Assembly (NCBI GenBank): GCA_035628995.1
Contig: DASPIR010000028.1
Location: 19,690-83,689 of the forward strand
Source: Clostridia bacterium
Lineage (GTDB): Bacteria; Bacillota; Clostridia; Lutisporales; Lutisporaceae
Direction of reading: 5' to 3'
Length of the DNA: 64,000 nucleotides
Shown here: positions 3,533 through 23,611 of the stretch, one piece after another
Layout: every line of letters begins with the position of its first letter
Position numbering within the stretch: the stretch's first letter is position 1
The notes under the pieces: model-generated
The model's input: only the letters and a program-made list of their open reading frames with translations
The model's database searches: none
What the model was told of the DNA's origin: nothing
Position numbers and translations under genes: made by a program

Positions 3533-3584
3533 ATGTCGGCCTCCTTTCAAAATCCCTTTGGTTTTAGCAGATTCTCCACAGTGT

Positions 3585-3665: not shown

Positions 3666-3679
3666 TTAGATAAAAAATT

Positions 3680-3705
3680 AACTGCTATCTTCTCAGATAA
3701 CAGTT
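3680..3705 (-). terminator. Terminator of the BusR-like gene
   Basis: Stem AACTGCTATC (3680-3689) with GATAACAGTT (3696-3705), one G-U pair, 6-nt loop. On the minus strand it is followed by T6 at 3672-3677. It lies directly after the stop of the gene ending at 3713. Confidence 0.85.
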
Positions 3706-3712
3706 TTTTAAA

Positions 3713-4360
3713 TTAAACTTTATTTACGTATTTATCTACCTTGTCAGAAATATTAGCATCATTCCCTACATAAAGAATAATATCATTTGAGTAAAACACC
3801 AGTTTCGGTCCCGGTGACAGATACAGGTGTCCGGAGCGGTTTATTCCTATTATCGTCGCACCTGTATGATCCCAGAAACGCACCTCCCCGATTGATTTTC
3901 CTATGAGATGGCTTTTTTCAGATATTTTCAGCTCCAAGGGATATATAATTCCAATATTTCTAAGAAGCATAGCCTGCTCAATAACCGAGTCCACCCGTTC
4001 AATAACAGATTTTTCAATGGACCTTTTTTCATCCATTAGTTTGTAAATATCCTCTCTAAGGGACAAAATTCTATCTTTTGACTGGTACTCCTTTATGAAA
4101 GTATTAGCTGCTTCTTTGGATTTTATTAAAATACCTTTTTTTTCGATAACATTCACAACCCGCAGCTCTTCCAGCAGCTTCAATGCTCTTCTGATTGTTT
4201 CCGGAGAAACGCTGTACTTGCCCGAAAGTGTAGATCGTCCTTTGACCATTTCGCCAACTTTCCATTCGTCGTTAAGAATACTATAAGCTATATCCAGTGC
4301 TATCTTCTCATATTTTGCAACAGATTCACCTTTATCTTCCAAATGGTTTTTCAAATTCAT
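3713..4360 (-). CDS. GntR-family regulator with C-terminal RCK_C (TrkA-C) domain, BusR-like
   Basis: A 215-residue regulator. An N-terminal GntR/YtrA-type winged helix (about residues 12-80, with SPETIRRALKLLEELRVV) is followed by a coiled-coil stretch with many charged residues (about 85-135). The C-terminal RCK_C domain spans about 140-215. This order matches BusR, the c-di-AMP-binding repressor of osmolyte uptake in streptococci. In that family c-di-AMP binds RCK_C and enhances DNA binding. No osmolyte ABC transporter is adjacent here, but a BCCT betaine transporter lies at 18731. ATG at 4360 has GAGGG six bases upstream. The domain call is firm; the ligand is inferred. Confidence 0.85.
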   Translation of the reverse strand: MNLKNHLEDKGESVAKYEKIALDIAYSILNDEWKVGEMVKGRSTLSGKYSVSPETIRRALKLLEELRVVNVIEKKGILIKSKEAANTFIKEYQSKDRILSLREDIYKLMDEKRSIEKSVIERVDSVIEQAMLLRNIGIIYPLELKISEKSHLIGKSIGEVRFWDHTGATIIGINRSGHLYLSPGPKLVFYSNDIILYVGNDANISDKVDKYVNKV

Positions 4361-7013: not shown

Positions 7014-7051
7014 AAAATGAAGAGAATCTTTGAAAAGATTCTCTTCATTTT
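7014..7051. terminator. Strong bidirectional terminator between convergent genes
   Basis: Perfect inverted repeat with 16-18 bp arms (AAAATGAAGAGAATCTTT from 7014, complement ending at 7051) and A/T-rich ends on both sides. It ends both the ECF S-component transcript and the long Mo-hydroxylase maturation cluster. Confidence 0.93.
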
Positions 7052-7847
7052 ATTTTATTTCCCTCATATGTTTTAAGTGACCGTTGTTTTTTACAAGCAA
7101 TATCTCAGAGAGAATACCAAAGGCTATCTCGGAGGCAGTATCCCCGCCCAGGTCCAGACCTATAGGCGCATATACCTTTTCAAGTTCAGACCTGTCGCAG
7201 CCTTCGTCCAAAAGCTGGTCAAAGACATATTTCGTCTTCTTACGGCTTCCTATCATTCCTACATAAGCAGCGTCCCTTCCTATTGCAGCCTTCAAAGCTT
7301 CAGTGTCGCATATATGTCCTCTTGTTACAATTACTACATAGCAGTTGTTGTCCAAGGGATAATTACTCATGCATTCACCGATATTCCCAATAAAGATATC
7401 GCAGCCGGGAAACCTTTCAGCATTTCCGTATTCCTCCCGGTCCTCAATAATCACTGCATGAAAGCCCATCAGCTCTCCAAGCTTATATAATTCAAGAGCT
7501 ATATGTCCGCCGCCAGCTATAACCAGCCTGTCCTTTTCCTTGAATACCTTTATGAAAACACTTGCTTTTCCCCCGCACTGCATATGCAGTTCGCCGGATT
7601 CCGTAAGCTCCAGCTCCAGAAGTCTGTTTTTCCCTTCTTCCATGCTCTCAAGTGCGTATTTCCTGGCTGTATTTTCAAAGTTTCCTCCACCAATTGTACC
7701 CATGGTTGTTCCATCCTCAAACACAGCCATCATAAAGCCTTGCTTGCCTGGTGATGACCCTTCTTCCTCTACTAAAGTAACAAGAGCTGCTTTCCTGTTA
7801 GCCTTGATTTCCGCAGCCAGCTTTTCCATAAGTGCGTATTCCATCAT
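7050..7847 (-). CDS. xdhC: XdhC/CoxI-family molybdenum hydroxylase maturation protein
   Basis: A 265-residue protein. The N-terminal XdhC_CoxI domain has EEGSSPGKQGFMM (about residues 28-40) and GTIGGGNFE; a C-terminal Rossmann domain has VIAGGGHIALELYKLG (about 112-127) and VGMIGSRKKT. XdhC proteins bind the molybdenum cofactor, promote its sulfuration and insert it into xanthine-dehydrogenase-type enzymes. The start is ATG at 7847 behind GGAAGGTG; only one base separates it from the stop of yqeB, so translation is coupled. It is the last gene of the maturation cluster and ends at the terminator at 7014-7051. Confidence 0.92.
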   Translation of the reverse strand: MMEYALMEKLAAEIKANRKAALVTLVEEEGSSPGKQGFMMAVFEDGTTMGTIGGGNFENTARKYALESMEEGKNRLLELELTESGELHMQCGGKASVFIKVFKEKDRLVIAGGGHIALELYKLGELMGFHAVIIEDREEYGNAERFPGCDIFIGNIGECMSNYPLDNNCYVVIVTRGHICDTEALKAAIGRDAAYVGMIGSRKKTKYVFDQLLDEGCDRSELEKVYAPIGLDLGGDTASEIAFGILSEILLVKNNGHLKHMREIK

Positions 7848-7848
7848 T

Positions 7849-8652
7849 TCACCTTCCAAATCTTTCTTTTCTTAGGTATAGTATTGCTTCCAGCACACCA
7901 CCTGCCACCGACCGTGCCTTATCCGAAATGGTATAGCAATATTCCCTTATTCCCCTTGGATCCACATCGCCGATTTTCAGTCCTTCTTTTACATAAGTAT
8001 TATCAGCAATTAGTCCTCTTATAACCCCTGCAATGGATGACTTCACCGGCTCATTATCTATAAGCGCAACTACATCCCCCTGCTTTACTATATCACCTAT
8101 TTCAAGAACGTTCTTTATTATACCGCTTCTAGAGGCACGAAGCAGCCTCTCCTGTGAATAGCCCATGATGTTTCCGGGTATTCCTGTATCTGCTGCAGCC
8201 GAGCCTTTATATATAGCCATTCCCAAGTCATGTCCTCTTTTTGTCTCTACTACGGCATCCACATCCACGCCTGCTTCAAAACCTGGACCAACACCTACTG
8301 TAATAGGCGCCATTCCCCTGTTAGTCCCAAGATTCTTTTTAGCCATTATTGCATCAACGACTGCTAACGGCTTGACTTTATCAAGAATACAGCACTCACT
8401 GTCGCATAATATGGGAATGCTATTGTTGTCCCATATTCCAGCAATACTATCACTGCTCAATGCCTTTACAGCCCGCACCCCTTCAATCTCGGCCTCACCT
8501 ATAAGAATTGCATTTGCAAAGGACGCACAGCGCCTTACAACCAGAGGCTCCTCGATATCAGTGAGAAGCAGTCTGAAGCCGCTTTTATAAAGTCTGTGGG
8601 CTATACCGGTAGCCAGATCTCCCGCGCCTCTAATAACAATTACATCATCCAT
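7849..8652 (-). CDS. yqeB: YqeB: selenium-dependent molybdenum hydroxylase system protein
   Basis: A 267-residue protein of the EF2563/YqeB family. VIRGAGDLATGIAHRL opens an N-terminal nucleotide-binding-like domain, and GVGPGFEAGVDVDAVVETKRG lies in the middle (about residues 127-147). YqeB and YqeC are phylogenetic markers of molybdenum hydroxylases with labile (non-selenocysteine) selenium at the active site. It probably helps put selenide on the cofactor. The start at 8652 has GGAGG seven bases upstream; M1 of the longer reading is too close to it. It overlaps the end of the yqeC-mocA fusion by 8 bases. Confidence 0.9.
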   Translation of the reverse strand: MDDVIVIRGAGDLATGIAHRLYKSGFRLLLTDIEEPLVVRRCASFANAILIGEAEIEGVRAVKALSSDSIAGIWDNNSIPILCDSECCILDKVKPLAVVDAIMAKKNLGTNRGMAPITVGVGPGFEAGVDVDAVVETKRGHDLGMAIYKGSAAADTGIPGNIMGYSQERLLRASRSGIIKNVLEIGDIVKQGDVVALIDNEPVKSSIAGVIRGLIADNTYVKEGLKIGDVDPRGIREYCYTISDKARSVAGGVLEAILYLRKERFGR

Positions 8653-9994
8653 TTTCATCCTCCAGCTTTAGGGCTGATTTGTATTCCTCTGGGGTATCGA
8701 TATCAAACCCTATAGTATCATTATCAAATTCAACTGCGACAATATGCCCTTCAAGTCCCTCAAGCAGTGTACGCCCTCCCGCATCTCCTCTGAGACTTAA
8801 AAGCCTATCTCTTAGTAAAGAGGAAAATATCACAGGGTTTCCCCTGTTTCCATTATATAATGGGACAACCGCACTGCAGTTCTCCTGTGAAAAGCTTTCA
8901 ATGAGCTGATTTATTATGCTGTCTGTGATAAAGGGCTGGTCTCCCACTAAGAACATGAATCCCTCCGCAGCCGGGCAGGAATTCTCTGCTCCAAGCCTCA
9001 CAGACTGGCTTTGTCCTAACTCGGGAGCAGGATTATGCACAAGCTTTGCTCCATATTTTCTGCCGATGGAGGCTATTTCATCACTGGCACATACCAAGAC
9101 AACCTCTCCAAGTTTTGAACGGTCAGCTGCTGCAAGTATTCTCTCTATTACGGGAACACCGCCTACAGGAAGCAGAAGCTTATTTCCGCCCATTCTCTTT
9201 GACAAACCTGCTGCAAGTATAATGCCGCTTATTTTCTTGACTGCATTCGTAAAGATGCAATTCTTCATACTGGCAATTACTATTTGTTCAGGATTATACC
9301 CATTATACAATAGCTTTTGTGCAATATCAAAAGCAGCTCTTCTCTCCTTTTCCCCCTCAGCCTTATTCACAATAAGGTATCTTTCAGAAAGAATCGGAGC
9401 AGCTTTGAAAAGTCCCTCCTTGTGCAGTATGAGCCTTAGTATCATATCTGCATCAATAATATCTCCTTCAGTGCACCCGAGCAGCTTGCAGAATAGCTCC
9501 GGCCTATGTACATTATCCGCACATACCTCTTTACCAACACAGTCCAAACCAATCAACCCTATTACCTTAGTGGTAGCAGATGGAATTACCGGCTCATGTT
9601 CTGCCGGTGCCTTTACCGGCCTGCCCTTTGAACCATCACCCTCGACCAGTATATAGTCAAATATACCCTTTGAGAATACAGTATCAAGAAACCCGGGACT
9701 AACTCCCAACAGCTTGCCTTCAGCGGAAAGCGACCTGCCAAGGACAGTTATTCCGCATTTATTTTCATTATCAAACAGCTCTAATGATTCTTCTTCAGAA
9801 ATTACTATTTTGTCATATTGGCTCTGCTCAGGATAATAAATTGCAGTAGTCGTTGTGGCAAGAATCTTCTTTCCATCTGATGAAAGCTCTCTGGCAAGGC
9901 GGAACATTGTCGAGGTTTTGCCCCCTGCTCCTATGAGGCAAATCATATCTGCCCTTTCTAGTTTGATATTTATCATACTGTATAGGTTTTCCAT
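8645..9994 (-). CDS. YqeC-MocA fusion: Se-Mo hydroxylase accessory protein / Moco cytidylyltransferase
   Basis: A 449-residue two-domain protein. Residues about 1-240 match YqeC, with a P-loop-like CLIGAGGKTSTMFRLAREL (about 18-36) and the segment ILVEGDGSKGRPVKAPAEHEP. Residues about 250-449 are a MobA/MocA-type nucleotidyltransferase with IILAAGLSKRMGGNKLLLP, VGDQPF and GNRGNPV motifs. MocA adds CMP to molybdopterin to make the dinucleotide form used by xanthine-dehydrogenase-type enzymes. These are usually two separate genes. The ATG at 9994 has GGAAGGT; it lies 5 bases after the stop of the MoeA-like gene. Confidence 0.9.
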   Translation of the reverse strand: MENLYSMINIKLERADMICLIGAGGKTSTMFRLARELSSDGKKILATTTTAIYYPEQSQYDKIVISEEESLELFDNENKCGITVLGRSLSAEGKLLGVSPGFLDTVFSKGIFDYILVEGDGSKGRPVKAPAEHEPVIPSATTKVIGLIGLDCVGKEVCADNVHRPELFCKLLGCTEGDIIDADMILRLILHKEGLFKAAPILSERYLIVNKAEGEKERRAAFDIAQKLLYNGYNPEQIVIASMKNCIFTNAVKKISGIILAAGLSKRMGGNKLLLPVGGVPVIERILAAADRSKLGEVVLVCASDEIASIGRKYGAKLVHNPAPELGQSQSVRLGAENSCPAAEGFMFLVGDQPFITDSIINQLIESFSQENCSAVVPLYNGNRGNPVIFSSLLRDRLLSLRGDAGGRTLLEGLEGHIVAVEFDNDTIGFDIDTPEEYKSALKLEDENG

Positions 9995-9998
9995 ACTA

Positions 9999-11018
9999 TT
10001 ACCTTCCAAATGTGCAATTGGGATATCTGCAGATATCGCAATTCTGGCATAGTCCCCCATGTCCCATCATCGTGAAATCCTTTTTGCAGAAGACCTCTCC
10101 CGCAAGAATTCTTGGCAATACAATATCAAGAACAGTAATTTTGTGATACATTCCACAAGCAGGAATACCCAACAGCGGAATGTTATTCTTATATCCCAGC
10201 ATAAACATCGCCCCCGGAAGTACTGGTGATCCGTAAGTGACTATGCTGTCAGCAACCTCTCTAATTGCAGAAGGGGTAACATCGTCAGCATCGACAGACA
10301 TTCCACCCGAAACAAACACTAATTGCACACCGCTTTTTATTTGTGCTTCAATGGCGGCTTTTATCTTCTCTTTACTATCAGGAGCATATATAGTATCTGT
10401 GAGCAGGCAGTCATAATCCGTAAGCTTCTTGGCAAGTACAGGCCCGAACTTATCTGTTATTCTGCCCTCAAACACTTCAGTACCAGTTACAACTATTCCT
10501 GCCTTAGGCTTTTCCAGCTCCTTGATCCAAATTACCTTGCCAAGTCTGCTGCATATTTCTTCAACCGCCTCTATGCTGCCCTTATCGATACAAAGTGGTA
10601 TGATTCTTGTACCCGCTATAATTTTGCCTATATTGACCATTGTATTGTTATGAAGTGTGGAGAATATAACCATATCTATAGCATTTATACATTCAAGTGC
10701 CTCAAGGTTTATTTTCAAAAGCCCTTTTTTGTCAGCCTTTAAACTGATTTTACCTTCGGTGGGGCCTGTCAGAATAATTCCCTCCCCTGCTGCCGCTTCA
10801 GCTATCCTCATGGCAGCATCATCCTCATGGAGAGTATTGCAGTCCATTTCAAGCACGAATATATTATTTTTTCCCATCTTTTTAAGTTCTTCGATATCTT
10901 CAGCCTGTATTATATGCCCTTTCTTAAAGGCCGCTCCCTTGAATTCGCCTGGTACAATTTTCGTAAGATCATGAGCCAGTATAGTTCCTACAGATTCTTC
11001 CACCCTAATGCTTTTCAT
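9999..11018 (-). CDS. Molybdopterin-binding protein (MoeA/MogA-like) with C-terminal cysteine cluster
   Basis: A 339-residue protein with a MoCF-biosynthesis (MogA/MoeA) domain at about residues 170-305, including VVTGTEVFEGRITDKFGPVL, VFVSGGMSVDADDVTPSAI and LLGIPACGMYHK. MoeA inserts molybdate into adenylated molybdopterin; this short version lacks the usual MoeA length (about 400). It ends in a cysteine cluster with spacing C-x2-C-x2-C-x4-C (GLCQNCDICRYPNCTFGR), suited to a metal or Fe-S site. AAGGAGGTGG lies 7 bases before the ATG. A terminator separates it from the lyase gene upstream, so it may have its own promoter or depend on read-through. Confidence 0.85.
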   Translation of the reverse strand: MKSIRVEESVGTILAHDLTKIVPGEFKGAAFKKGHIIQAEDIEELKKMGKNNIFVLEMDCNTLHEDDAAMRIAEAAAGEGIILTGPTEGKISLKADKKGLLKINLEALECINAIDMVIFSTLHNNTMVNIGKIIAGTRIIPLCIDKGSIEAVEEICSRLGKVIWIKELEKPKAGIVVTGTEVFEGRITDKFGPVLAKKLTDYDCLLTDTIYAPDSKEKIKAAIEAQIKSGVQLVFVSGGMSVDADDVTPSAIREVADSIVTYGSPVLPGAMFMLGYKNNIPLLGIPACGMYHKITVLDIVLPRILAGEVFCKKDFTMMGHGGLCQNCDICRYPNCTFGR

Positions 11019-11055
11019 GAATTCTCCACCTCCTTATTATAATTGTAATTGAAAA

Positions 11056-11087
11056 ACAGACATGGAGCAAGATGCATCCATGTCTGT
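11056..11087 (-). terminator. Terminator after the HAL-fold lyase gene
   Basis: Perfect 11-bp stem ACAGACATGGA (11056-11066) with TCCATGTCTGT (11077-11087), followed on the minus strand by a run of T. It divides the structural genes (lyase and hydroxylase) from the maturation genes downstream. Confidence 0.88.
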
Positions 11088-11097
11088 CAATAAACCT

Positions 11098-12618
11098 TTA
11101 TTTGGTTATTCTCATTGCTTCTTTTACATCTGCAATTAACTTACCCGAGCGTAGAACCTCATATGCTTTTTTTATATCTACGGAAAGGTTTCTGTCCTTA
11201 TCATAGAAGGGTACTGCTTTTCTTATAGAATCAAAAGCGGCTTTTGTACCTTTTCCCATATGTATGTCGTTTCTCAAATCAACGGCCTGAGCAGCATGTA
11301 TGGCCTCTATCCCCAATATGTAGAACATATTGTCAACTATCTTCCGTGTCTTCTGTACTATGTATGGAGCGTTGTTTGCATGATCCTCCATGTCTCCTGC
11401 CAATGAAAAGAAATCAGAAATTGCAGGGTTGGATAAATGTCTTATCTCAGTATCAAGGGATGTATAAGTCTTCTGTATTGTTGCAAATGCAAGTACATTA
11501 TCCGCAGGTGAAAGGAATCTGGACAGCTTTGTAAATGCCGGATTACCAAGTTTAATCATCCTGTGGCATGAGACCTTTGAAAGCTGACTTAATGCCAAAC
11601 CCAGCATTTCAAATCCCAAGGACCAATTGGTGACCTCGAAATTCGAGCAGGATATTATCTTTTTGTCATCCATTATTATGCATGGATTATCATCTGAGGA
11701 ATTCAGCTGTATGTCCAGCAAGCCCTCAACATAAGCAACTGCATCCCTGACTGCTCCATGTACATGAGCTGAGCCTCGGAAGCTTAAAGGGTCCTGAACG
11801 GGCTTTTTCCAATCCGGTTCCCAAATATAGCTTCCCTCAAGATATTCTGTAATTCTCTCTGCACTGTATGCCTGTCCTTTATATGGCCTTATACGGTGCG
11901 TCCTTACATCCAGAGGAGAAACATTTCCATTTAGTCCTTCAAGGGATAATGCATATATTACATCTGATATATCTAAAAGCTCTTTTATATCATTTAATAC
12001 AAGGGCTCCTTGTCCGGCTGAAAGTGCATTGGAACTCACTATAGCAAGACCATCCTTTGGTCCTAGCACCACAGGCTCCAAGCCCGCTCTTTTCAAGGCT
12101 TCAGCAGAAGCTATCCTCTCTCCGTTATAGAAGGCCTCCCCTTCTCCCAGCATTGCAAGTCCTATATGAGAAAGACAGGTTATATCTGCTTCTCCGATAG
12201 AGCCTCTTTCCGGAATAACCGGATGCACCCCTGCATTGAGCATATCCTTATACATAACAGCTATCTCAGGCTGTATTCCTGTCGCACCTACCAACAGTGT
12301 ATTGAGCCTTGCGAGCATTATTGCCCTTACTTCATCCTCGGTCGCAATCGGGTCTACCCCAAGGCAGTGGGAGTATATGAGATTCCTATTATACTCCTGG
12401 AAGAACTCCTTAAAGACTCTTTTGTCTTTATTCCAACCAACGCCTGTATTGAAGCCGTAAACCGGCACATTACTGTCAACAAGATCGAACACCAGCTGTC
12501 TTGACGCTTTAAGTGCATCAATGGCTTCGGGAGTAATTTCCACCTTAAGTCCTTCCCTTGCGACCTTGACAACCTGCTCTATTGTCAAATCTCTGCCATT
12601 CAAATTCACAGTATCCAT
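11098..12618 (-). CDS. Aromatic amino acid lyase (HAL/PAL) fold enzyme lacking the MIO triad; candidate ergothionase-like lyase
   Basis: A 506-residue protein of the histidine/phenylalanine ammonia-lyase superfamily. Kept features are VYGFNTGVG (about residue 55), NRNLIYSHCLGV, the SSNALSAG asparagine region, QDPLSFR and GDMEDHANNAP (general-base Glu). The cofactor loop near residue 134 reads GSIGEADITCLSH where HAL has GSxGASGDLAPLxH. The self-cyclising Ala-Ser-Gly triad is therefore absent, and one residue is deleted. The catalytic Tyr of QDPYSLR (HAL Tyr280) is Leu here. Such an enzyme should not remove ammonia by the MIO route. Ergothionase, which eliminates trimethylamine, is the known MIO-free relative. 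No hutU or hutI is nearby. The fold is certain; the substrate is inferred. Confidence 0.85.
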   Translation of the reverse strand: MDTVNLNGRDLTIEQVVKVAREGLKVEITPEAIDALKASRQLVFDLVDSNVPVYGFNTGVGWNKDKRVFKEFFQEYNRNLIYSHCLGVDPIATEDEVRAIMLARLNTLLVGATGIQPEIAVMYKDMLNAGVHPVIPERGSIGEADITCLSHIGLAMLGEGEAFYNGERIASAEALKRAGLEPVVLGPKDGLAIVSSNALSAGQGALVLNDIKELLDISDVIYALSLEGLNGNVSPLDVRTHRIRPYKGQAYSAERITEYLEGSYIWEPDWKKPVQDPLSFRGSAHVHGAVRDAVAYVEGLLDIQLNSSDDNPCIIMDDKKIISCSNFEVTNWSLGFEMLGLALSQLSKVSCHRMIKLGNPAFTKLSRFLSPADNVLAFATIQKTYTSLDTEIRHLSNPAISDFFSLAGDMEDHANNAPYIVQKTRKIVDNMFYILGIEAIHAAQAVDLRNDIHMGKGTKAAFDSIRKAVPFYDKDRNLSVDIKKAYEVLRSGKLIADVKEAMRITK

Positions 12619-12657
12619 ATGCTATCCCCTTCCACTGTTTTAAAACAATCTTTGATT

Positions 12658-14919
12658 CTATTTACATTTCTCTTTGATTTTTTCCATTATGCGCTCCGGA
12701 GTTGCCGGCAAGACATCTAGCTTTATATCAAGAGCATTGTTTATAGCATTTATTATTGCAGGGGCTGCAGCAACAGTTGCAACTTCTCCTACACTTTTTG
12801 CACCATAAGGGCCGTATTCCTCCCCTTCTTCAATAAGTAGCACCTTAACATCAGGCATATCTGGAGCATTAACAACAAGGTATCTGCCAAACCGGTCATT
12901 TTGAATCCTTCCCTTGCTGTCAAAAGTGATTTCCTCTGATAGAGCCATACCCATTCCCATCTGTATCGATCCCTGAATCTGCCCTATAACGAATTCCGGA
13001 TTTATTGCCTTTCCAATATCATGAGCTGCCAGAAAATCCAGTACCTTTACCATTCCGGTAACTGTATCCACCTCAACCTCAACAAAGTTAGCACAATAGC
13101 TTGCAGGATTTCCTGGTGACTGGTATGTCAAAGTTTCTCCCGCCTCATCGCCATATTGGGTTTGAATAATCGATGCAATATCCCCATAGGACATTTTATT
13201 TGATTCCTTCTGTCTATCCCATATGAAGCCTTTTTCCATAACCACATCTTCTATATTGCATTCAAAAATACCTGCGCTGTACCTCTTAATTTTTTCTTTG
13301 ACCAACTGTGAAACCTTCATTGCCGCTCCACCGCATACAAATGTCACTCTGCTTGCCTGGGTACCGGCAGAGTCAAAAGGACTTGCAAGAGTATCGGCTC
13401 CAGGTACGTATATCTTATCAATATCCATATCCAGAGTTTCAGCGACAATCTGCATCATAGTTGTATTTGTACCACAGCCCAAATCATGCAATGCACCTTT
13501 AAGCACTGCATACCCATCTGCGGAAATTCTCAGTGACATGGTAATAAAGTCCGGATATGCGCCAAAATACCCGTTCCCGTGAGCACAGCAAGCCATACCC
13601 ACTCCGCGTACGAATCTGCCTTCATCCTTCTTTCTTGTATACCTTTCTTTCCAATTAAAAGCCTCAGCTCCTTTAGCAACACAATCGATTACTCTCGCAT
13701 TGCCAAGATCGGGCCCTCCAATCGGATCCTTTTCATAAGGATGAACAAGATTCTTAAGCCGAAGTTCCACAGGGTCCATCCCAAGGCCTCTGGCGACATT
13801 CTCGATGTTTATCTCGGTTATAGCGTGCAGCTGCGGTGAACCATAACCTCTTGCTGCTCCACCTATCGGTGTGTTTGTATAAACGCTTGCAGTACTATAC
13901 TTTTGATTCTTTATCCTGTACAACTTAAAAGCTTTTTTACCCATTGCCATTGCAATAGCGCTTCCGTTTGTAAAATATGCCCCTGCATCCACAAGAACGT
14001 GGATGTCTCTTGCCAGAATATTTCCTTCCTTATCCACAGCAGTTTTTACTGTGCCTATGGTTTTGGTCCTTGTTCTAGTTCCAATTATTGCTTCCGTCCT
14101 GTCCATAACAAGCTTAACCGGCTTTTTCAATTGTTGAGAAATATAAGCACAAACCGGCTCAATTGTCGGCTGGCTCTTTCCCCCAAAGGAACCTCCAAGA
14201 GTGGTTTTTATGACACGGACACTGCTGTCTGGTATTCCTAATGCTTCTGATATAATAAGCTGTACCTGAAAAACAACCTGGCAAGGCGTCCATACGGTAA
14301 TATTCCCACAAGGGTCGGTATCTGCAATGCAAGCGTGGGTTTCCATTGCTGCATGATGCACTTTGGGGGTTTCAATCCTATCGTCCACAACAAGATATGC
14401 ATTCTCCATTTCCTTAGCGGGGTTTCCGCAGCCAAACTCTTTACTGAATACAACGTTGCCGGATTCATGAATCTTTACAGCATCAGCCTTTAATGCATCC
14501 TCCGGATTTATAATAACAGGAAGTTCTTCATATTCAACCTCAATAAGCCTAACCGCCTTCTCTGCTGTATGCTTATCAACCGCTACTACAGCGGCAACTC
14601 TGTCCCCATAATAGCGGATTTTGTCTGAAAACAAGCACTCATCCTTTACAACCTCTAAACCGCTTATCCATCTATGCGAATTATAGAGGTTATGCGGAGA
14701 ATTCTTATAGGTAAATACAGCCTTTACCCCGACTAGGGCTTCTGCTTTTGATGTATCTATATTCTTTATCCGACCATGGGCAATATTGCTAAGCAGGAGC
14801 TTGGCATGGAGCATCCCCGGCAGTACCATATCCCCTACATACTTGGTTTTCCCCGTAAGCTTCTCTCTTACATCATGCATTGGAACATAAGTCCCGACAT
14901 ACCTCAGATTTTCTGCCAC
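12658..14919 (-). CDS. Molybdenum hydroxylase large (Moco-binding) subunit, xanthine dehydrogenase family
   Basis: A 753-residue catalytic subunit, the normal length. Visible are the N-terminal ald_Xan_dh_C domain (about residues 15-125), GGSFGGKSQPTIEP (about 235), the substrate-site motif GGAARGYGSPQ (about 355), and GAKSVGEVATVAAAPA near residue 704 with the catalytic Glu of the GxKxVGE motif. It hydroxylates a carbon next to nitrogen in a heteroaromatic ring, or oxidises an aldehyde, using water as oxygen source. The start is GTG at 14919, overlapping the FAD-subunit stop by one base. The neighbouring YqeB/YqeC predict labile selenium at Mo. The lyase gene follows after 39 bases, suggesting that the two act in one pathway. 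Confidence 0.94.
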   Translation of the reverse strand: MAENLRYVGTYVPMHDVREKLTGKTKYVGDMVLPGMLHAKLLLSNIAHGRIKNIDTSKAEALVGVKAVFTYKNSPHNLYNSHRWISGLEVVKDECLFSDKIRYYGDRVAAVVAVDKHTAEKAVRLIEVEYEELPVIINPEDALKADAVKIHESGNVVFSKEFGCGNPAKEMENAYLVVDDRIETPKVHHAAMETHACIADTDPCGNITVWTPCQVVFQVQLIISEALGIPDSSVRVIKTTLGGSFGGKSQPTIEPVCAYISQQLKKPVKLVMDRTEAIIGTRTRTKTIGTVKTAVDKEGNILARDIHVLVDAGAYFTNGSAIAMAMGKKAFKLYRIKNQKYSTASVYTNTPIGGAARGYGSPQLHAITEINIENVARGLGMDPVELRLKNLVHPYEKDPIGGPDLGNARVIDCVAKGAEAFNWKERYTRKKDEGRFVRGVGMACCAHGNGYFGAYPDFITMSLRISADGYAVLKGALHDLGCGTNTTMMQIVAETLDMDIDKIYVPGADTLASPFDSAGTQASRVTFVCGGAAMKVSQLVKEKIKRYSAGIFECNIEDVVMEKGFIWDRQKESNKMSYGDIASIIQTQYGDEAGETLTYQSPGNPASYCANFVEVEVDTVTGMVKVLDFLAAHDIGKAINPEFVIGQIQGSIQMGMGMALSEEITFDSKGRIQNDRFGRYLVVNAPDMPDVKVLLIEEGEEYGPYGAKSVGEVATVAAAPAIINAINNALDIKLDVLPATPERIMEKIKEKCK

Positions 14920-15812
14920 TATCTTTCACCCCCGGTAAGCATATCCCCAAACAGCATATTATAAATATCAATACCAGCACCTGTTACTTCATCTATCTTG
15001 TTCTCATATCTCTTTACCCCGTTTATTGAGTCTTTGACATGATCCTGAAGCGCAGATACAAACCTATAGCCCAGTTCCACAGTCGGTTTGCTGCCCCTTA
15101 AGGCGTTCTCCGCCATTACCGCATGATATGGAATCGGGGCTGCAGATCCAATTACAATACTTGCATCTTCTATTACACCAGTGCTGCTATCATATTTTAC
15201 TGCAGCAGCTACATTGATGTTTGCAATTACAACTGTTGTTCTGCTGCTTTCCCTGCCGTACTTGCTGAAAGCACTTCTACAGCCGCCATTTACATATGGA
15301 ATCAGCATCTCTATAATAGCCTCATCTTTTTTTAGGCTGTTTTTACTTATTCCTATGACAATTTCATCTATAGTTCTTAAAGTTGTTTTACCATTGCTGT
15401 TAATTGTTCTAATCAGTGCATTTACGGCAAGAAGTGCAGGAATGGAATCCCCTCTGGGAGAGCTGTTTGCAATATTTCCTGCCATGCTCGCAGCATTCCG
15501 TATCTGCTGTGAACCAACCTGCCTTGCGGCTTGCCCAACACATGCAGCATATTTGTTTATGATTTCACTTTCTCCTATTTCAGCGAAGGTAACATTTGCA
15601 CCTATCTTTATAAAGCCGTCATCAATTTTAATATGCTCAAGCTCACTTATTCCGGACATATCGATTATCCTGCCGGAATAGATGCCGCGGTTTCTGAGCT
15701 TTATTGTTAAATCGGTTCCGCCGCTTAAAATATATGTGTTGACATCCGCATTTTTAAGGTAGACTATAAGCTCCTTTACACTCCTAGGAGTTTCAAACAG
15801 AAACTGTTCCAT
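14919..15812 (-). CDS. Molybdenum hydroxylase FAD-binding medium subunit
   Basis: A 297-residue FAD subunit (CoxM/XdhB type). It has YILSGGTDLTIKLRNRG (about residues 28-44), AASMAGNIANSSPRGDS (about 105-121) with the flavin-contact asparagine, and a CO_deh_flav_C domain from about 175. It passes electrons from the Fe-S subunit to NAD or another acceptor. The ATG at 15812 lies behind GGGGGG; a longer ORF from 15845 would overlap the Fe-S gene without a ribosome binding site. It is the second gene of the three-subunit operon. Confidence 0.92.
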   Translation of the reverse strand: MEQFLFETPRSVKELIVYLKNADVNTYILSGGTDLTIKLRNRGIYSGRIIDMSGISELEHIKIDDGFIKIGANVTFAEIGESEIINKYAACVGQAARQVGSQQIRNAASMAGNIANSSPRGDSIPALLAVNALIRTINSNGKTTLRTIDEIVIGISKNSLKKDEAIIEMLIPYVNGGCRSAFSKYGRESSRTTVVIANINVAAAVKYDSSTGVIEDASIVIGSAAPIPYHAVMAENALRGSKPTVELGYRFVSALQDHVKDSINGVKRYENKIDEVTGAGIDIYNMLFGDMLTGGER

Positions 15813-15837
15813 TATATCCCCCCCTGGTGTTTTTAAC

Positions 15838-16296
15838 TTATGCATCCTGTGACACCTCTTTAACTGCCGCTACAATTTTGGTATAGCCTGTACATCTACA
15901 CAAATTTCCAGATATGGCGACCCTTATTTCTTCCTCTGTAGGGTGAGGGTTTTTCATCAAAAGTGCTTTACTGGACATAAGCATACCCGGAGTACAATAC
16001 CCGCATTGAACAGCACCATTGCTTATAAATGCCTTTTGAAGCCTGTCAAGCTCCCCGTCCTTTTCCAGCCCTTCTACAGTGATAATTTCCTTTCCGCCTA
16101 TCTGTCCAATCATTATCAAGCAGGAGTTGACTGCCAGACCATCCATTATCACAGTACATGCTCCGCACTCGCCTTCTCCGCAGCCTTCCTTCGTACCCGT
16201 CAGGCCAATATCCTCCCTCAGTACATCCAAGAGCCGTCTTTCCGGCTCAACCTCCAGCGAATACTTATTACCATTTACTATCATTTCAACCCGCAT
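15838..16296 (-). CDS. Molybdenum hydroxylase [2Fe-2S] small subunit
   Basis: A 152-residue iron-sulfur subunit with two [2Fe-2S] sites. The plant-ferredoxin-type cluster is in GCGEGECGACTVIMDG (about residues 38-53); the helical-domain cluster uses CGYCTPGM (about 98) and NLCRCTGY (about 131). It transfers electrons from the Mo site to FAD. It is the first gene of the hydroxylase operon, with GGAGG ahead of the ATG and a hairpin terminator of the chemoreceptor gene just upstream. Confidence 0.95.
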   Translation of the reverse strand: MRVEMIVNGNKYSLEVEPERRLLDVLREDIGLTGTKEGCGEGECGACTVIMDGLAVNSCLIMIGQIGGKEIITVEGLEKDGELDRLQKAFISNGAVQCGYCTPGMLMSSKALLMKNPHPTEEEIRVAISGNLCRCTGYTKIVAAVKEVSQDA

Positions 16297-16328
16297 GGAT
16301 AAACCTCCGTATCAATTTCTACAATAAA

Positions 16329-16356
16329 ATATGCTGATTCTTATAAATCAGCATAT
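16329..16356 (-). terminator. Terminator between chemoreceptor gene and hydroxylase operon
   Basis: Perfect 11-bp stem ATATGCTGATT (16329-16339) / AATCAGCATAT (16346-16356) with a 6-nt loop, followed on the minus strand by TTTTATT. It could also lie in the leader of the hydroxylase operon and act as an attenuator. Confidence 0.7.
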
Positions 16357-16414
16357 CATAAAATCGTCAAGAAAAAGTCTAATATGTATTAACTATATCC
16401 CATTCCTCAACTGC

Positions 16415-18388
16415 TTATTTTATAATTGAATCTGCCAGCTCGGAAGCTGCCTGGGCACGTGACATGCCTGTATGCACTTTGCATATGGCTGTATTTAACA
16501 CCTGAATATCCAACTTGAAGTCCTTAAACAGCTTATAAAGCTCTGGATTTTCTTCCTTAAGACCTTTACGGACAATGGTTGCAGTATATTCCTCCGGTCC
16601 CATGGTCTCCTTGGGATCCTGCAGGAATTTAAGCTCATAGAAACCAAATTTCCAGTGTGGCTGCCACCCTGTTACTGCCACCCATTCCTTGTTTTTGTAG
16701 CGTTTATCCAGTGCTTCCAGCATGGTATTCTCAGTGCCGAAGTCCGGCTCAAAACCTGCCAGACCGTACTCATTAATGGTATTGATAAGCTGCATCCCGG
16801 TAGCCAGCTTTCTTTCAGGTGAGTATATCCTGCCTCCGAACTCACGGACATACTTATTCATATCCGCTATCCTATCTATGCTGACATATCTTGGTACAAT
16901 AATCCCGCTTTTGCAGCCATGCATATTGGGTCCCAAGTATTCAAAATCCTTCTGGTATTTTTCCATGAAAGCCTTACCGGACAAGGGTAGCCATGGACCT
17001 AAAGTACCATCTATGCTTCCGTCTGCAACTGCTTTGTACAATGCCCCCGAGGGTACGGGAATACCTTCCACAACCAGCCCCAGCTTCCTTCTCACCAACT
17101 CCTTGAACACTTCAACCTGCATTATGGCGTCCTCATATTCTCTGTGGGCTACTTTAATATATTTGAACTGTTTCATCTGTTCTGATATTTTGACTGTTTT
17201 TGAGCTAAACTCTGCGACTCTCTCATTAATCATAGCTATTGAGAACACCTGCTCCTGTACGCTGGCTGACACTTCCTCAGCCCCGGCTGCTGTTTGCTCG
17301 GTTGCTGCAGAAATATCCTCCATAACGCCACTGATATTCTTACTGAAGGTTGTCAGCTGATTTGTCTTTCCGCTAATACTCTCAACCTGGTCAGTAATGG
17401 CCTCAATAGACGAATGAATATTCCCGAAGGCTTTTTCTGTGTGTTCAATAGCAACCCGCTGCCCCATTATGGTTTCGCTTCCACTCTGGACGGTCTCAAC
17501 TATGGATGAAACCTCATTTACTATTTTGTCAATAAGTCCTTTAATCTCCAGAGTAGAGTTCTTGGTGTTGTCTGCCAGCTTTCTGATTTCACCAGCCACA
17601 ACAGCAAATCCCTTACCCGCCTCTCCTGCCCTGGCGGCCTCTATTGCGGCATTCAGCGCAAGCAGATTGGTCTCCTCCGATACCTGAGAGATAGTTCCGA
17701 TAATATTCTTTATTTCCATGGTACTTTGGTTAAGACCTGAGACGGCATGTTGAATGTCATTAAATTTCTCTGTTGTATCTAACACTACCCTCTTCTGCTC
17801 CTTCAGAACCTCATTACCTTCTGTAACTGTTTGAACCGAGTTCTGCATGCCTTTTCTAATGGTTAAAGCATCCTTATCAATGGATTGTATAAAATCTCCA
17901 GTACGTATAATTTCCATGGCCGCATCCTGAACCATCTCCGCTATATGAGTATTACCCTGTGCTACGTCATTGACCGCTGCAGCTACATGTTTTGCAGACT
18001 CTTCTATTGCTTTTGTATCCTCGTACAGAAGATCCCCAGAGCTTTCAACCGTTTTGGCTGCCGCCATTACATCCACAGAAATTGCTTTCAGGCTGTTCAT
18101 AATCTCTAATATTTTTCCATCTTCAGAAGAAGCACTTTGCTTATTATTCTGAATAACGTTGAAATTGTAACTGCTCAGCTCATCCAAAAGCCCATCATCC
18201 TTTTTACCGCGGCTTTCCTTCATGAACATGATAACAGCTATGCAGCAGAGGACCTGAATCCCTAAAAAGGAGACTTCACTTACAGTCCCCGCCAACTTTG
18301 CCAACGCTAAATAATGGACCAGGTTCAATGCTACTATGACAAAACATAGTAAAAGAACTCGATGCAAACGGTGACTTTTTTCTCTCAT
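16415..18388 (-). CDS. Methyl-accepting chemotaxis protein with C-terminal cytoplasmic OpuAC betaine-binding domain
   Basis: A 657-residue receptor. Two membrane helices (about residues 9-30 and 38-56) are joined by a very short loop, so there is no extracellular sensor. The signalling coiled coil follows, with the tip around [20 protein letters not shown] (about 243-262). From about residue 405 to the end is an OpuAC-type (glycine betaine/proline ABC) binding domain with Trp residues in [10 protein letters not shown] and [10 protein letters not shown] that could form an aromatic betaine cage. By topology this domain is in the cytoplasm. It would sense an already imported quaternary ammonium compound and signal to CheA. 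It is divergent from the BCCT transporter and upstream of the hydroxylase operon. AAGGAGG precedes the ATG. Confidence 0.9.
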
Positions 18389-18730
18389 TGTATACCTCCT
18401 TAAAGTTGTACTATAATCACTGGTTTATCCATAATTTTATACATTTGGTGTAATTATACTATCAAAACGTCAACAAATAATCTAAAAATACTACATAATA
18501 TTACATGTGTATTTTAAAAATATGTATGTCATCTGAATAAACATAATATTGAGAATATATAGAAAGTTTATTTTTTTAGACCTTTTATTGACGTTTCTAT
18601 TATAATATAATCATGAAAACCATTTATTAGGTGGGGCAGGATTGGTAATACAATCAAATATATCTAGGGAGGTGGGGATTTAAAGGCATCTCTTGCTATG
18701 AGTAAAAAATAGAAACAAGGAGGTATATTA
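18389..18730. promoter_or_regulatory. Divergent promoter region of chemoreceptor and BCCT genes with shared TTGACGTTT motif
   Basis: A 342-bp intergenic region with no supported gene. Both directions carry the nonamer TTGACGTTT a short distance before a perfect TATAAT. On the minus strand the motif is at 18473-18465 and the -10 at 18458-18453. On the plus strand the motif is at 18588-18596 and the -10 at 18601-18606. The spacing is too short for a normal -35, so the nonamer may be an activator or repressor site. The BCCT leader is about 115 nt long and ends in AAGGAGG. The divergent layout suggests co-regulation, perhaps by the SARP-type regulator at 20410. Confidence 0.5.
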
Positions 18731-20350
18731 ATGAAATCAAAAATCAGACCGATAGTTTTTTGGCCATCTTTCATTATTCTTATTGCGGCTGTGATCTTTA
18801 GTTTAGTAAATCTTGAAACATTTTCCTCCACTCTTTCAAAGGTTACCGTGTGGTCAATGGGTTTCTTTGGAGCAGGTTATGAATTGCTTACTGTCATAAT
18901 GATGTTTGTGTGCATAGCAGTCTTTCTAATGCCCTTTGGCAGAGTCCGAATAGGCGGTGGTCAGGCTCAGGCACCTTATGGACTATTTTCTTATTTTACT
19001 ATGTGTCTTGCAATGACAGTAGCAACAGGTATCCTTTTCTGGGGCGCATTAGAGCCTATATTCCATGTGACACAGCCTCCGGCATCATACGGAATTACCC
19101 CTGGATCACCTGAGTCAGCTGTCTTCGCTATGTCCACCATATTCCTTCACTGGACATTTACGCCCTATGCCATATATGGCGTACCGACAGTATTATTCGC
19201 ATTCGTATATTACAACATGAAAAAGTCATTTACAGTATCCTCCATGCTATCCCCTATATTGGGCGATAAAACAGAAGGCAGAATAGGTCAGATAGTAGAC
19301 TCCATCATAGTTCTTGCAATGGTATGTGGTGTTGCCACAACCCTTGGCGTTGGAACAATGATGATTACCGGTGGTCTCAGAACTGTATTCGGCATTCCGA
19401 GCAATATTTGGATTTGGCTTTGTGTATGCGGCGGCATCGTGCTTGCTTTTGTAATTTCAGCAATAGCAGGCATTTCAGATGGTCTGAAGCACTTGGCAAA
19501 GTTTAATTTCTTCATATTCCTTTTCCTGTTGGGCTGGGTCATCGTATTCGGTTCCGCTCTCTACTGCATCAACCTTGGACTGGAAGGCTTCGGAGACTTC
19601 TTAGGCAATTTCTTCCAGAAAAACTTCTTCACAGGCGCAGCAGCAGGCGATCAATGGCCTGTATGGTGGACTATATGGTATTATGCAATATGGATGGCAT
19701 GGGCGCCTGTCAGCGCAGTATTCCTTGGCCGTATCTCCTACGGCTACAAGGTCAGAACTGTTATCGGCATCAATGTTTTCGTATCTGCACTCTTCAGTGT
19801 AATTTGGTTCACTTTCTTCAGCGGTACTGCAATCCATATGGAAATAGTACAGCAGTTAGGTCTTGGACAAGTGCTGGCGACTCAAGGAAATGAAATGGTA
19901 ACCTATGCATTCTTCGGAGGCTTGCCATTAGGGAAGCTTATAAGCGGTGTATTCGTTATTACAGCTTTTATAACCTTTGTTGCCGGTGCAGATGCAATGT
20001 GCGCAACACTGGCTGGTCTAAGCACCTATGGTATTTCTCCTGATAATCCGGAATCCTCACGTTCTTTGAAGATTATATGGGGTGTTGTACTTGGTGCCGT
20101 TGCCTGGATTACCATGAGCTTTGCAGGTCTTGACGGACTTAAGGCACTCTCCAATTTGGGCGGTATTCCTACCTTGCTCTTACTGGTACCTGTAACCTGG
20201 GCATTAATAAAGGTAGCAGCAAACCCATTCAAGTATGATACTTTCAAGGAAGACTATGATGTTTACGGACAGCCTAAGAGGGAGATTGTAAATCCTCTTG
20301 CTGAGGCTGCTGCTTCAACAAGTGCTGAAGCAGCAAGCACAAACAACTAA
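18731..20350 (+). CDS. BCCT-family betaine/carnitine/choline-type transporter
   Basis: A 539-residue protein with 12 predicted membrane helices, the BCCT family size. Helix 3 holds ATGILFWGALEPIFHV and helix 8 the tryptophan-rich signature WWTIWYYAIWMAWAPVSAVF with following LGRISYG. BCCT carriers import quaternary ammonium or sulfonium zwitterions (glycine betaine, carnitine, dimethylsulfoniopropionate) by Na+ symport or by exchange. Helix 3 lacks the GMGIG of sodium-coupled BetP, so coupling may differ. A short Ala/Ser-rich tail ends the protein, without a long osmosensing extension, which fits nutrient uptake rather than osmoprotection. It is divergent from the betaine-domain chemoreceptor. 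Confidence 0.94.
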   Translation: MKSKIRPIVFWPSFIILIAAVIFSLVNLETFSSTLSKVTVWSMGFFGAGYELLTVIMMFVCIAVFLMPFGRVRIGGGQAQAPYGLFSYFTMCLAMTVATGILFWGALEPIFHVTQPPASYGITPGSPESAVFAMSTIFLHWTFTPYAIYGVPTVLFAFVYYNMKKSFTVSSMLSPILGDKTEGRIGQIVDSIIVLAMVCGVATTLGVGTMMITGGLRTVFGIPSNIWIWLCVCGGIVLAFVISAIAGISDGLKHLAKFNFFIFLFLLGWVIVFGSALYCINLGLEGFGDFLGNFFQKNFFTGAAAGDQWPVWWTIWYYAIWMAWAPVSAVFLGRISYGYKVRTVIGINVFVSALFSVIWFTFFSGTAIHMEIVQQLGLGQVLATQGNEMVTYAFFGGLPLGKLISGVFVITAFITFVAGADAMCATLAGLSTYGISPDNPESSRSLKIIWGVVLGAVAWITMSFAGLDGLKALSNLGGIPTLLLLVPVTWALIKVAANPFKYDTFKEDYDVYGQPKREIVNPLAEAAASTSAEAASTNN

Positions 20351-20359: not shown

Positions 20360-20392
20360 AAATCCCTTGGCATTCAAAATGCCAAGGGATTT
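20360..20392. terminator. Bidirectional terminator after BCCT and SARP genes
   Basis: Perfect 15-bp stem AAATCCCTTGGCATT (20360-20374) / complement (20378-20392) with a 3-nt loop, followed by TTTATTTTA on the plus strand. It lies between convergent genes. Confidence 0.93.
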
Positions 20393-23463: not shown

Positions 23464-23611
23464 AAACTTTACCCCCATTATATTCATACTCTAATTATAT
23501 AAAAGGCCTCTATTGAAACATTTTAATGATTAAGGAAGCCTTTTATGAAATGTATTTAACGGAAAGTGTTACACTAAGGAAATTTATTCTTTCCTATACA
23601 TTATAACCTAA

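What the first reader, a model, noticed from the sequence alone, without database searches (positions are those of the whole stretch)
7050..20350. Candidate catabolic system for an aromatic betaine such as ergothioneine
Seen: an MIO-less HAL-fold lyase, a three-subunit molybdenum hydroxylase with YqeB/YqeC/MocA/MoeA/XdhC maturation genes, a chemoreceptor with a betaine-binding domain and a BCCT carrier, all contiguous. Known: BCCT and OpuAC proteins handle quaternary ammonium compounds; ergothionase removes trimethylamine from ergothioneine with a HAL-like fold but no MIO; molybdenum hydroxylases oxidise N-heterocycles. Inference: the carrier imports ergothioneine, hercynine or a similar betaine, the lyase releases trimethylamine and yields (thio)urocanate, and the hydroxylase acts on the ring. 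No hut genes are present. Other aromatic betaines remain possible.
Basis: partly seen in the sequence, partly recalled or inferred. Interest (0 to 1): 0.85.

Follow-up and report, generated by a model that had tools for sequence, protein, structure and literature searches.

The report
Ergothioneine breakdown operon with intracellular chemoreceptor
This bacterial gene cluster encodes a close relative of the enzyme ergothionase beside a molybdenum enzyme, and is predicted to strip trimethylamine and then sulfur from the dietary antioxidant ergothioneine, likely guided by a chemoreceptor whose betaine-binding domain would lie inside the cell.

Summary
The lyase is ergothionase-type: best solved relative is Treponema denticola ergothionase (544 bits; a HAL follows at 240), the MIO tripeptide is missing, and 35 such lyases form one side of a 100/100 branch. 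Of 22 loci of this clade read, 15 have the molybdenum enzyme beside the lyase; the other 7 have a thiourocanate hydratase instead. The host has ordinary HutH, HutI, HutU and FtcD elsewhere, with a paralog of the regulator beside HutU-FtcD. So the molybdenum enzyme most likely does not hydroxylate the ring but reductively removes sulfur from thiourocanate, giving urocanate and H2S, as a 2025 paper is cited as showing for a gut bacterium. The pathway is a new example of a known kind. What looks new is the chemoreceptor: a membrane hairpin, a signalling coiled coil and a C-terminal OpuAC domain predicted to face the cytosol; 11 of 23 homologues lie on contigs whose lengths match ergothionase contigs, and four family members lack any membrane segment. 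Nothing was assayed.

The parts
7014..7051 (.). strong terminator-like hairpin read on both strands, 3' end of the minus-strand operon
   Evidence: 17-pair stem listed on both strands
7050..7859 (-). XdhC-type maturation factor
   Evidence: PF13478 125.6 bits, PF02625 72.9 bits; homologue after the molybdenum gene in L003, L004, L005
7849..8658 (-). YqeB, maturation protein named for selenium-dependent molybdenum enzymes
   Evidence: TIGR03309 365.7 bits, cut-off 220
8645..10060 (-). YqeC fused to MocA-type cytidylyltransferase
   Evidence: TIGR03172 199.9/73.05 and TIGR03310 192.9/186.45; a MocA-like homologue follows the molybdenum gene in L060 (185.3 bits, just under the 186.45 cut-off)
9999..11018 (-). 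molybdopterin-binding (MoeA/MoCF-like) protein; overlaps the next gene by 62 bases as called
   Evidence: PF00994 75.3 bits
11098..12618 (-). ergothionase-type lyase, MIO tripeptide absent
   Evidence: 6s7j 543.9 bits; clade 100/100 with it; no ASG
12658..14919 (-). molybdenum subunit, predicted reductive thiourocanate desulfurase
   Evidence: PF02738, PF20256, PF01315; beside the lyase in 15 of 22 loci; GGSFGGK in 15 of 15
14919..15845 (-). FAD subunit
   Evidence: PF00941 119.7 bits
15838..16296 (-). 2Fe-2S subunit
   Evidence: PF01799 114.2 bits
16328..16357 (-). terminator-like hairpin between the chemoreceptor and the enzyme genes
   Evidence: 13-pair stem
16415..18388 (-). chemoreceptor: two-helix membrane hairpin, MCP signalling coiled coil, C-terminal OpuAC domain predicted to be cytosolic
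   Evidence: PF00015, PF04069; hydrophobic windows only within residues 6-59; AlphaFold2 model
18389..18730 (.). divergent intergenic region between chemoreceptor and carrier; promoter-like site for the carrier at 18577-18606
   Evidence: consensus match only
18731..20350 (+). BCCT betaine carrier
   Evidence: PF02028 398.1 bits; BetP 179.9 bits; a BCCT gene in the stretch read in 11 of 15 molybdenum-type loci
20360..20392 (+). strong terminator-like hairpin after the carrier
   Evidence: 15-pair stem
   Evidence: homologue in 12 of 15 loci; paralog 40.6% identical beside HutU-FtcD in the same genome

Best explanation
This operon, which encodes an ergothionase-type lyase, a three-subunit xanthine-oxidase-family molybdenum enzyme, a BCCT carrier and a chemoreceptor, is predicted to take up ergothioneine, likely split it into trimethylamine and thiourocanate, and would then reductively remove the sulfur to give urocanate for the host's ordinary histidine-degradation enzymes. 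Proposed steps: (1) the BCCT carrier imports the betaine (inferred). (2) The lyase eliminates trimethylamine without an MIO group (family and missing tripeptide shown; reaction inferred from the clade). (3) The molybdenum enzyme, matured by XdhC, MocA/YqeC and YqeB, cleaves the C-S bond: thiourocanate + 2e- + 2H+ -> urocanate + H2S (inferred; electron donor unknown). (4) HutU, HutI and FtcD, encoded elsewhere in the genome, carry urocanate to glutamate with a formimino group passed to folate (genes shown, flux inferred). (5) The regulator 20410-23487 and its paralog beside HutU-FtcD likely switch both loci on together (inferred). (6) The chemoreceptor senses the imported betaine from inside the cell through its C-terminal OpuAC domain (domain order shown; topology predicted from sequence and model; ligand inferred). 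Trimethylamine is probably released, as no MttB-family gene was found in the genome.
For: Lyase: best solved relative is T. denticola ergothionase 6s7j, 543.9 bits over 3-495, next a HAL at 240.1; 35 MIO-less lyases with 6s7j nested among them form one side of a 100/100 branch against 9 HALs and 3 other MIO-less paralogs; ASG 0 of 35 against 9 of 9. Support for a sulfur substrate: seven Paenibacillus-type loci of the same clade show no molybdenum gene, and in 7 of 7 a urocanase-family gene passes the thiourocanate hydratase model (1020.5-1039.3, cut-off 930); in the four whose next gene was given to the scan (L007, L010, L011, L012) that gene passes thiohydantoin desulfurase (597.1-611.4, cut-off 440). 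Molybdenum enzyme: beside the lyase in 15 of 22 loci; in the order of Clostridium pascui's genome 9 of 225 genomes have the lyase and 10 the molybdenum subunit, all 9 shared; in the window's class 6 of 391 have the lyase (5 plus a contig-end fragment in G006) and 9 the subunit, all 6 shared. Route to urocanate: HutI inside the L062 operon; HutH with ASG in the L006 and L063 stretches; a urocanase gene about 11 kb from the lyase in G397, the genome of L006; the host's HutU passes hutU (448.2/375) and not thiourocanate hydratase (309/930), with FtcD and formate-THF ligase next to it and a regulator paralog just beyond. [quoted passage not shown] PMC13405746 (passages) cites thiourocanate desulfhydrase releasing H2S.
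Against: No activity was tested. The cited desulfurase paper (Feng et al.) is not held, so its sequence could not be compared. By NCBIfam the molybdenum subunit scores highest on xanthine dehydrogenase XdhA (627 bits, below its 780 cut-off) and lower on 4-hydroxybenzoyl-CoA reductase (491.5). Four genomes have a molybdenum-subunit match without the lyase at the cut-offs used (G511, G004, G198, G309; 39-49% identity). The BCCT carriers of the other loci are only 29-43% identical to the window's, and four of 15 stretches show none (L061 has a sodium-symporter gene after the lyase; L062 and L047 are short contigs). No 2Fe-2S gene was recognised in 3 of 15 stretches, including L013, the closest. 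YqeB and YqeC were not seen among the neighbours in the other loci. The OpuAC domain is nearer in sequence to glycine-betaine-binding proteins than to EgtU. The chemoreceptor was found in only 2 of 18 genomes searched.
Confidence: 0.8

Rival explanations
1. The molybdenum enzyme is a true oxidative hydroxylase that adds oxygen to the imidazole ring of thiourocanate or urocanate; sulfur is lost later by another enzyme.
For: Most xanthine-oxidase-family enzymes are oxidative (stated in PMC12771579); the best NCBIfam model is a xanthine dehydrogenase subunit; the glutamate of GAKSVGE, recalled as the catalytic one of the family, is kept.
Against: No thiohydantoin desulfurase or thiourocanate hydratase was recognised in the window's cluster, HutI lies inside one molybdenum-type operon, the host HutU is of the urocanate type, and a reductive member acting in ergothioneine breakdown is cited. 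The closest solved relative by phmmer is the reductive 4-hydroxybenzoyl-CoA reductase (333.4 bits; next 289.3).
Confidence: 0.12
2. The lyase acts on hercynine or another aromatic betaine rather than ergothioneine, giving urocanate or a cinnamate-type acid directly; the molybdenum enzyme then acts on that product.
For: BCCT carriers and OpuAC domains bind many betaines (breadth recalled); the lyase is well diverged from the characterised enzyme, so specificity may have drifted.
Against: The characterised T. denticola ergothionase lies inside the clade and seven loci of the same clade carry a thiourocanate hydratase. A sulfur-removing partner would be pointless for hercynine.
Confidence: 0.08
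3. The lyase is an ordinary histidine (or aromatic amino acid) ammonia-lyase that has merely diverged.
For: It still scores 405.8 bits on the PRK09367 HAL model.
Against: Below both HAL cut-offs (405.8/524; 392.2/539.15), no MIO tripeptide, and the genome has a separate HutH with ASG beside HutI.
Confidence: 0.02
4. The chemoreceptor is unrelated to this pathway and follows glycine betaine or another osmolyte; its place beside the operon is incidental to the lineage.
For: Closest solved domains bind glycine betaine (3l6g, 30% identity); a second copy in G008 lies beside MttB-family and corrinoid proteins, not ergothionase; no match in 16 of 18 genomes searched.
Against: 11 of 23 homologues lie on contigs with the exact length of an ergothionase contig, and both window and L013 have it in the operon.
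Confidence: 0.3

Closest known systems
Ergothionase of Treponema denticola (PDB 6s7j, 6s7q)
   Same: Same clade (100/100), MIO tripeptide absent, best solved relative at 543.9 bits over nearly the whole chain
   Different: Diverged sequence on a separate branch of the clade; here in an operon with a molybdenum enzyme, a BCCT carrier and a chemoreceptor (context of the T. denticola gene was not examined)
Gut bacterial ergothioneine pathway with a reductive xanthine-oxidase-family enzyme (Feng et al., JACS 2025; known here only through citations in PMC12771579 and PMC13405746)
   Same: Ergothioneine breakdown in which a xanthine-oxidase-family enzyme cleaves the C-S bond
   Different: Sequence not comparable here; this cluster has YqeB/YqeC maturation genes, a chemoreceptor with a cytosolic betaine domain and a large BTAD regulator, whose presence in the published cluster is unknown to me
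Ert-type ergothioneine route (thiourocanate hydratase, thiohydantoin desulfurase, hydantoin-5-propionate amidohydrolase, ErtE; NCBIfam NF058530, NF058529, NF058538-NF058540)
   Same: Shares the ergothionase clade; seen in seven Paenibacillus-type loci
   Different: Sulfur removed after ring hydration by another enzyme instead of a molybdenum enzyme; none of these genes was recognised in the window's cluster
4-hydroxybenzoyl-CoA reductase (PDB 1rm6) and urolithin C dehydroxylase Ucdh
   Same: Xanthine-oxidase-family enzymes that run reductively (PMC12771579 passages)
   Different: Remove hydroxyl groups; here a thione sulfur would be removed
OpuAC glycine-betaine-binding proteins (3l6g) and EgtU (7txk, 8dp6)
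   Same: Same fold as the chemoreceptor's C-terminal domain
   Different: Those are outside the cell and feed transporters (recalled); here the domain is the C-terminus of a chemoreceptor and is predicted to face the cytosol

Membership tests
Ergothionase | HAL/PAL fold family PF00221 over the whole chain | tested here: met
   492.4 bits, residues 11-467, profile 1-466
Ergothionase | MIO-forming ASG tripeptide absent | tested here: met
   SIGE-ADI in place of SLGASGDL; 0 of 35 in clade, 9 of 9 HALs have it
Ergothionase | Groups with a characterised ergothionase and apart from HALs | tested here: met
   100/100 branch, 6s7j nested
Ergothionase | Releases trimethylamine from ergothioneine | not testable with these tools
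   no assay; predicted by clade and context
Histidine ammonia-lyase (HutH) | MIO tripeptide and score above TIGR01225 cut-off | tested here: not met
   no ASG; 392.2 against 539.15 bits
Xanthine-oxidase-family thiourocanate desulfurase | Three-subunit molybdenum/FAD/2Fe-2S enzyme of the xanthine oxidase family | tested here: met
Xanthine-oxidase-family thiourocanate desulfurase | Encoded with ergothionase | tested here: met
   15 of 22 loci; 9 of 9 lyase genomes among 225
Xanthine-oxidase-family thiourocanate desulfurase | Orthologous to the published enzyme | not testable with these tools
   paper not held; no NCBIfam model of that name among the hits
Xanthine-oxidase-family thiourocanate desulfurase | Reductive C-S cleavage | not testable with these tools
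   inferred
Xanthine dehydrogenase XdhA | Score above curated cut-off | tested here: not met
   627 against 780 (NF043082), 605.7 against 916 (NF007426)
Selenium-dependent molybdenum hydroxylase | YqeB/YqeC maturation genes and SelD in the genome | tested here: met
   YqeB, YqeC over cut-off; SelD 393.4/125 with one in-frame TGA
Selenium-dependent molybdenum hydroxylase | Labile selenium at the active site of this enzyme | not testable with these tools
   two other molybdenum enzymes on contig 10 could be the clients instead
Membrane chemoreceptor with extracellular sensor | MCP signalling domain | tested here: met
   PF00015 121.1 bits, hairpin in model
Membrane chemoreceptor with extracellular sensor | Ligand domain between two transmembrane helices | tested here: not met
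   the two hydrophobic stretches (6-34, 32-59) adjoin; OpuAC is at 411-650 with no later membrane segment
EgtU ergothioneine-binding protein | Sequence match to EgtU structures | tested here: not met
   not among the 5 PDB sequence hits at E <= 0.001; same fold at 12-16% identity only
Thiourocanate hydratase (host HutU) | Score above NF058530 cut-off | tested here: not met
   309 against 930; passes hutU 448.2/375

The most novel reading that the evidence does not exclude
The cluster defines a new kind of chemoreceptor, one that reads a nutrient after uptake: a substrate-binding-protein domain moved from outside the cell to the C-terminal end of a signalling hairpin in the cytosol, so that the cell swims by the internal level of the betaine it is breaking down. 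Family members without any membrane segment, and a second copy beside MttB-family and corrinoid genes, suggest one sensor family serving several quaternary-amine pathways.
Probability: 0.5. Interest if true: 0.7.

Novelty: new variant of a known kind. Interest (0 to 1): 0.5.

Why it matters
Ergothioneine is a dietary antioxidant whose breakdown by gut anaerobes is reported to yield trimethylamine and hydrogen sulfide (PMC13405746 passages). A recognisable lyase clade with two alternative partner sets in the 22 loci read here (molybdenum enzyme, or hydratase and thiohydantoin desulfurase) lets ergothioneine degraders be told from histidine degraders, although databases mostly name these lyases histidine ammonia-lyase or aromatic amino acid lyase where they name them. 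PMC13405746 reports that its own BLAST search gave only ammonia-lyase names. The chemoreceptor offers a testable case of a substrate-binding domain used on the cytosolic side.

Tried and rejected
Regulator site: two AGGTGGGG copies 41 bases apart (18629, 18670) lie upstream of the carrier, but this 8-mer was not found in L013 or L058, so I do not claim a binding site. Trimethylamine use: no MttB-family match in the genome. Plasmid search: 119 plasmid records have lyase homologues, all under 60% identity, mostly Rhizobium (67) and Sinorhizobium (27); their MIO status was not checked. First tree (53 rows) held one very long row, L038_HAL, probably a wrong frame because the longest frame was picked blindly, and two very long rows from L062; I dropped these and three duplicates (P0073, P0050, P0032) and rebuilt with 47. 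Before the first tree I had left out two lyase rows (the 218-residue G006 fragment, and L045, the same gene as L013), took 16 of the 120 listed homologues, and 7 of the HAL loci. P0143 was left out of the chemoreceptor alignment A1 (22 of 23 homologues plus the window's). Literature: ergothioneine with chemotaxis and chemoreceptor gave 3 papers (listing only, none opened); OpuAC with chemoreceptor or with methyl-accepting chemotaxis gave 4 papers each (only PMC9602780 opened, passages); a phrase search gave none. I make no claim of absence beyond these listings. The homologue search for the chemoreceptor depends on shared 5-residue words, so 23 is a lower bound, as is 11 (one search lists 120 of 2563).
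Full report
What is there. The window (contig 28 of a 3.65 Mb genome of 35 contigs) carries a minus-strand run of nine genes from 18388 down to 7050, a divergent BCCT gene 18731-20350, and a large regulator 20410-23487 on minus. Neighbouring minus-strand genes mostly overlap or touch; the larger gaps are 118 bases after the chemoreceptor (with a hairpin at 16328-16357), 39 bases after the molybdenum subunit and 79 bases after the lyase. Strong hairpins close the run at 7014-7051 and the carrier at 20360-20392. The nearest named genome found with the same operon is MX18-03, which NCBI files under Calditrichales and which the genome tool places in the window's own family (G008; its contig length equals the record's). 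Two close lyases (P0016, P0103) are named from 'Clostridia bacterium', a third (P0017) from 'Caulobacteraceae bacterium'; I do not assign the host.

The lyase. phmmer against solved structures gives T. denticola ergothionase at 543.9 bits and the next entry, a HAL, at 240.1. The MIO segment SLGASGDL of the host's own HAL reads SIGE-ADI here, one residue shorter. In a tree of 47 lyases, all 35 ergothionase-like rows including 6s7j lie on one side of a 100/100 branch, with 9 HALs and 3 other MIO-less paralogs on the other. Twenty-two columns are fixed differently in the two groups (at least 34 of 35 against 9 of 9); among them HAL Asn to Ser at window residue 195, Thr to Asn at 197, Tyr to Leu at 278 and Tyr to Lys at 383. 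That some of these line the HAL pocket is recalled, not tested. The genome has its own HutH, with ASG, beside HutI and a methenyl-THF cyclohydrolase-like gene.

Two partner sets for one lyase. I read the surroundings of 22 ergothionase-clade loci (L045 is the same place as L013). In 15 the lyase stands beside the molybdenum and FAD genes (window, L003-L006, L013, L046-L048, L057, L060-L064); a 2Fe-2S gene was recognised in 12 of these (not in L013, L047, L064). In the other seven (L007-L012, L014; Bacillus/Paenibacillus, Cohnella, Carbobacillus) no molybdenum gene was seen in the stretch. In all seven a urocanase-family gene passes thiourocanate hydratase (1020.5-1039.3, cut-off 930), and in L007, L010, L011 and L012, the four given to the scan, the following gene passes thiohydantoin desulfurase (597.1-611.4, cut-off 440). 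One L014 ORF tested for it gave no family. In L007 amidohydrolase, M20 peptidase and OpuAC transporter genes follow; the amidohydrolase scores best on, but below the cut-off of, the ErtD models. Thus one lyase clade is paired with two different ways of handling thiourocanate, which argues for ergothioneine rather than hercynine.

Co-occurrence. In 225 genomes of the order of C. pascui, 9 have the lyase at E <= 1e-125 and 10 the molybdenum subunit at E <= 1e-140; all 9 lyase genomes are among the 10. In 391 genomes of the window's class, 5 have the lyase at that cut-off and a sixth (G006) has it as a contig-end fragment; 9 have the molybdenum subunit and these include all 6. The chance values (3e-15 and 2e-11) take no account of kinship. 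Molybdenum matches without the lyase: G511, G004 (82% complete), G198, G309, at 39-49% identity. The cut-offs were chosen by me to part the lyase from HALs.

What the molybdenum enzyme does. The 15 linked subunits carry GGSFGGK where the genome's two other molybdenum enzymes have GGGFG. The closest solved chain is 4-hydroxybenzoyl-CoA reductase (333.4 bits), a reductive member of the family; against this, NCBIfam scores it highest on xanthine dehydrogenase XdhA, below cut-off. PMC12771579 (passages) says that a gut bacterial xanthine oxidase homologue reductively cleaves an aromatic C-S bond in ergothioneine catabolism; PMC13405746 (passages) says that thiourocanate desulfhydrase releases H2S. 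The original paper is not held. The rest of the route is present: HutU with FtcD and formate-THF ligase on contig 27, HutI on contig 29. In L062 HutI is part of the same run as the molybdenum genes; the L006 and L063 stretches have a HutH with ASG, and in the genome of L006 (G397) a urocanase gene lies about 11 kb from the lyase. Of the 10 molybdenum-type genomes searched (own, and nine) nine have a urocanase gene and G006 has none. A paralog of the cluster's regulator, 40.6% identical, lies just beyond HutU-FtcD in the window's genome, with one small opposite-strand frame between. I therefore infer thiourocanate to urocanate plus H2S. YqeB, YqeC and a SelD with one in-frame TGA make a selenium-containing version possible, but the two other molybdenum enzymes could be the clients, and these genes were not seen as neighbours in the other loci.

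The chemoreceptor. Residues 6-59 hold two adjoining hydrophobic helices; no window starting after residue 61 exceeds 1.3 on the Kyte-Doolittle scale (19 residues). The signalling domain follows (207-353) and OpuAC is at 411-650. The AlphaFold2 model from 23 sequences (mean pLDDT 77.9, pTM 0.51) shows two short helices, a long coiled-coil hairpin 89-405 and an alpha/beta domain 411-656. Foldseek ranks OpuAC above EgtU by E-value and identity (30% against 12-16%); TM-scores by target length vary with the open or closed state (open OpuAC 3l6g 0.84, closed 3l6h 0.71, EgtU entries 0.58-0.73). With no membrane segment after residue 59 the betaine domain should face the cytosol, as the signalling domain must. 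Support: four family members that look complete have no hydrophobic segment (P0128, P0141, P0145 and the second G008 copy, L065:8264-10093; a fifth, P0146, begins inside the protein). A search found 23 homologues, all with both domains; 11 of 23 are on contigs whose exact length is that of a contig among the best 120 lyase hits, which I take as the same contigs. A profile search found it in 2 of 18 genomes (G000, G008). The second G008 copy stands beside two MttB-family proteins and a corrinoid protein, so the receptor family may go with quaternary-amine use in general. Trp466 and Trp575, aligned with tryptophans of OpuAC, are invariant among the rows aligned; that these are ligand-stacking residues is recalled.

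Verdict.

Noticed in passing
L048:4556-6106(-), L057:4250-5746(-), L064:5828-7450(-): A second MIO-less HAL-family protein (GSVGY with three residues missing) lies near the ergothionase gene and a BCCT carrier in three loci, on its own 100/100 branch; for the L064 one the nearest solved relatives are HALs; function unknown.
   Followed up: partly
L062:1454-2779(-) and 2792-4249(-): Two adjacent strongly diverged HAL-family proteins without the ASG tripeptide, between HutI and the molybdenum subunit in the ergothionase operon.
   Followed up: partly
L065:8264-10093(-): Soluble MCP-OpuAC chemoreceptor beside two MttB-family methyltransferases, a corrinoid protein and a PLP enzyme: possible sensor of another betaine.
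   Followed up: partly
L061:13670-15772(+), L063:4585-6579(+): dCache chemoreceptors lie within or near the ergothionase-molybdenum loci of two Clostridium-order genomes; in L061 the gene is between lyase and 2Fe-2S gene.
   Followed up: no
L061:12982-13518(+), L063:13203-13739(+): 178-residue proteins without a Pfam match in the same place of two ergothionase operons.
   Followed up: no
window 39732-41876 (-): 714-residue protein with ten matched WG repeats (PF14903).
   Followed up: no
window 31522-39470 (-): PTS-type sugar locus: enzyme I, zinc-dehydrogenase-like protein, PfkB kinase, PRD regulator, EIIC/EIIB.
   Followed up: no
P0103 (protein, not in the window): 499-residue predicted protein in which part of a MoCoBD_2 domain is joined to part of a lyase 94% identical to the window's; probably an assembly or gene-calling join of the two neighbouring genes.
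   Followed up: no
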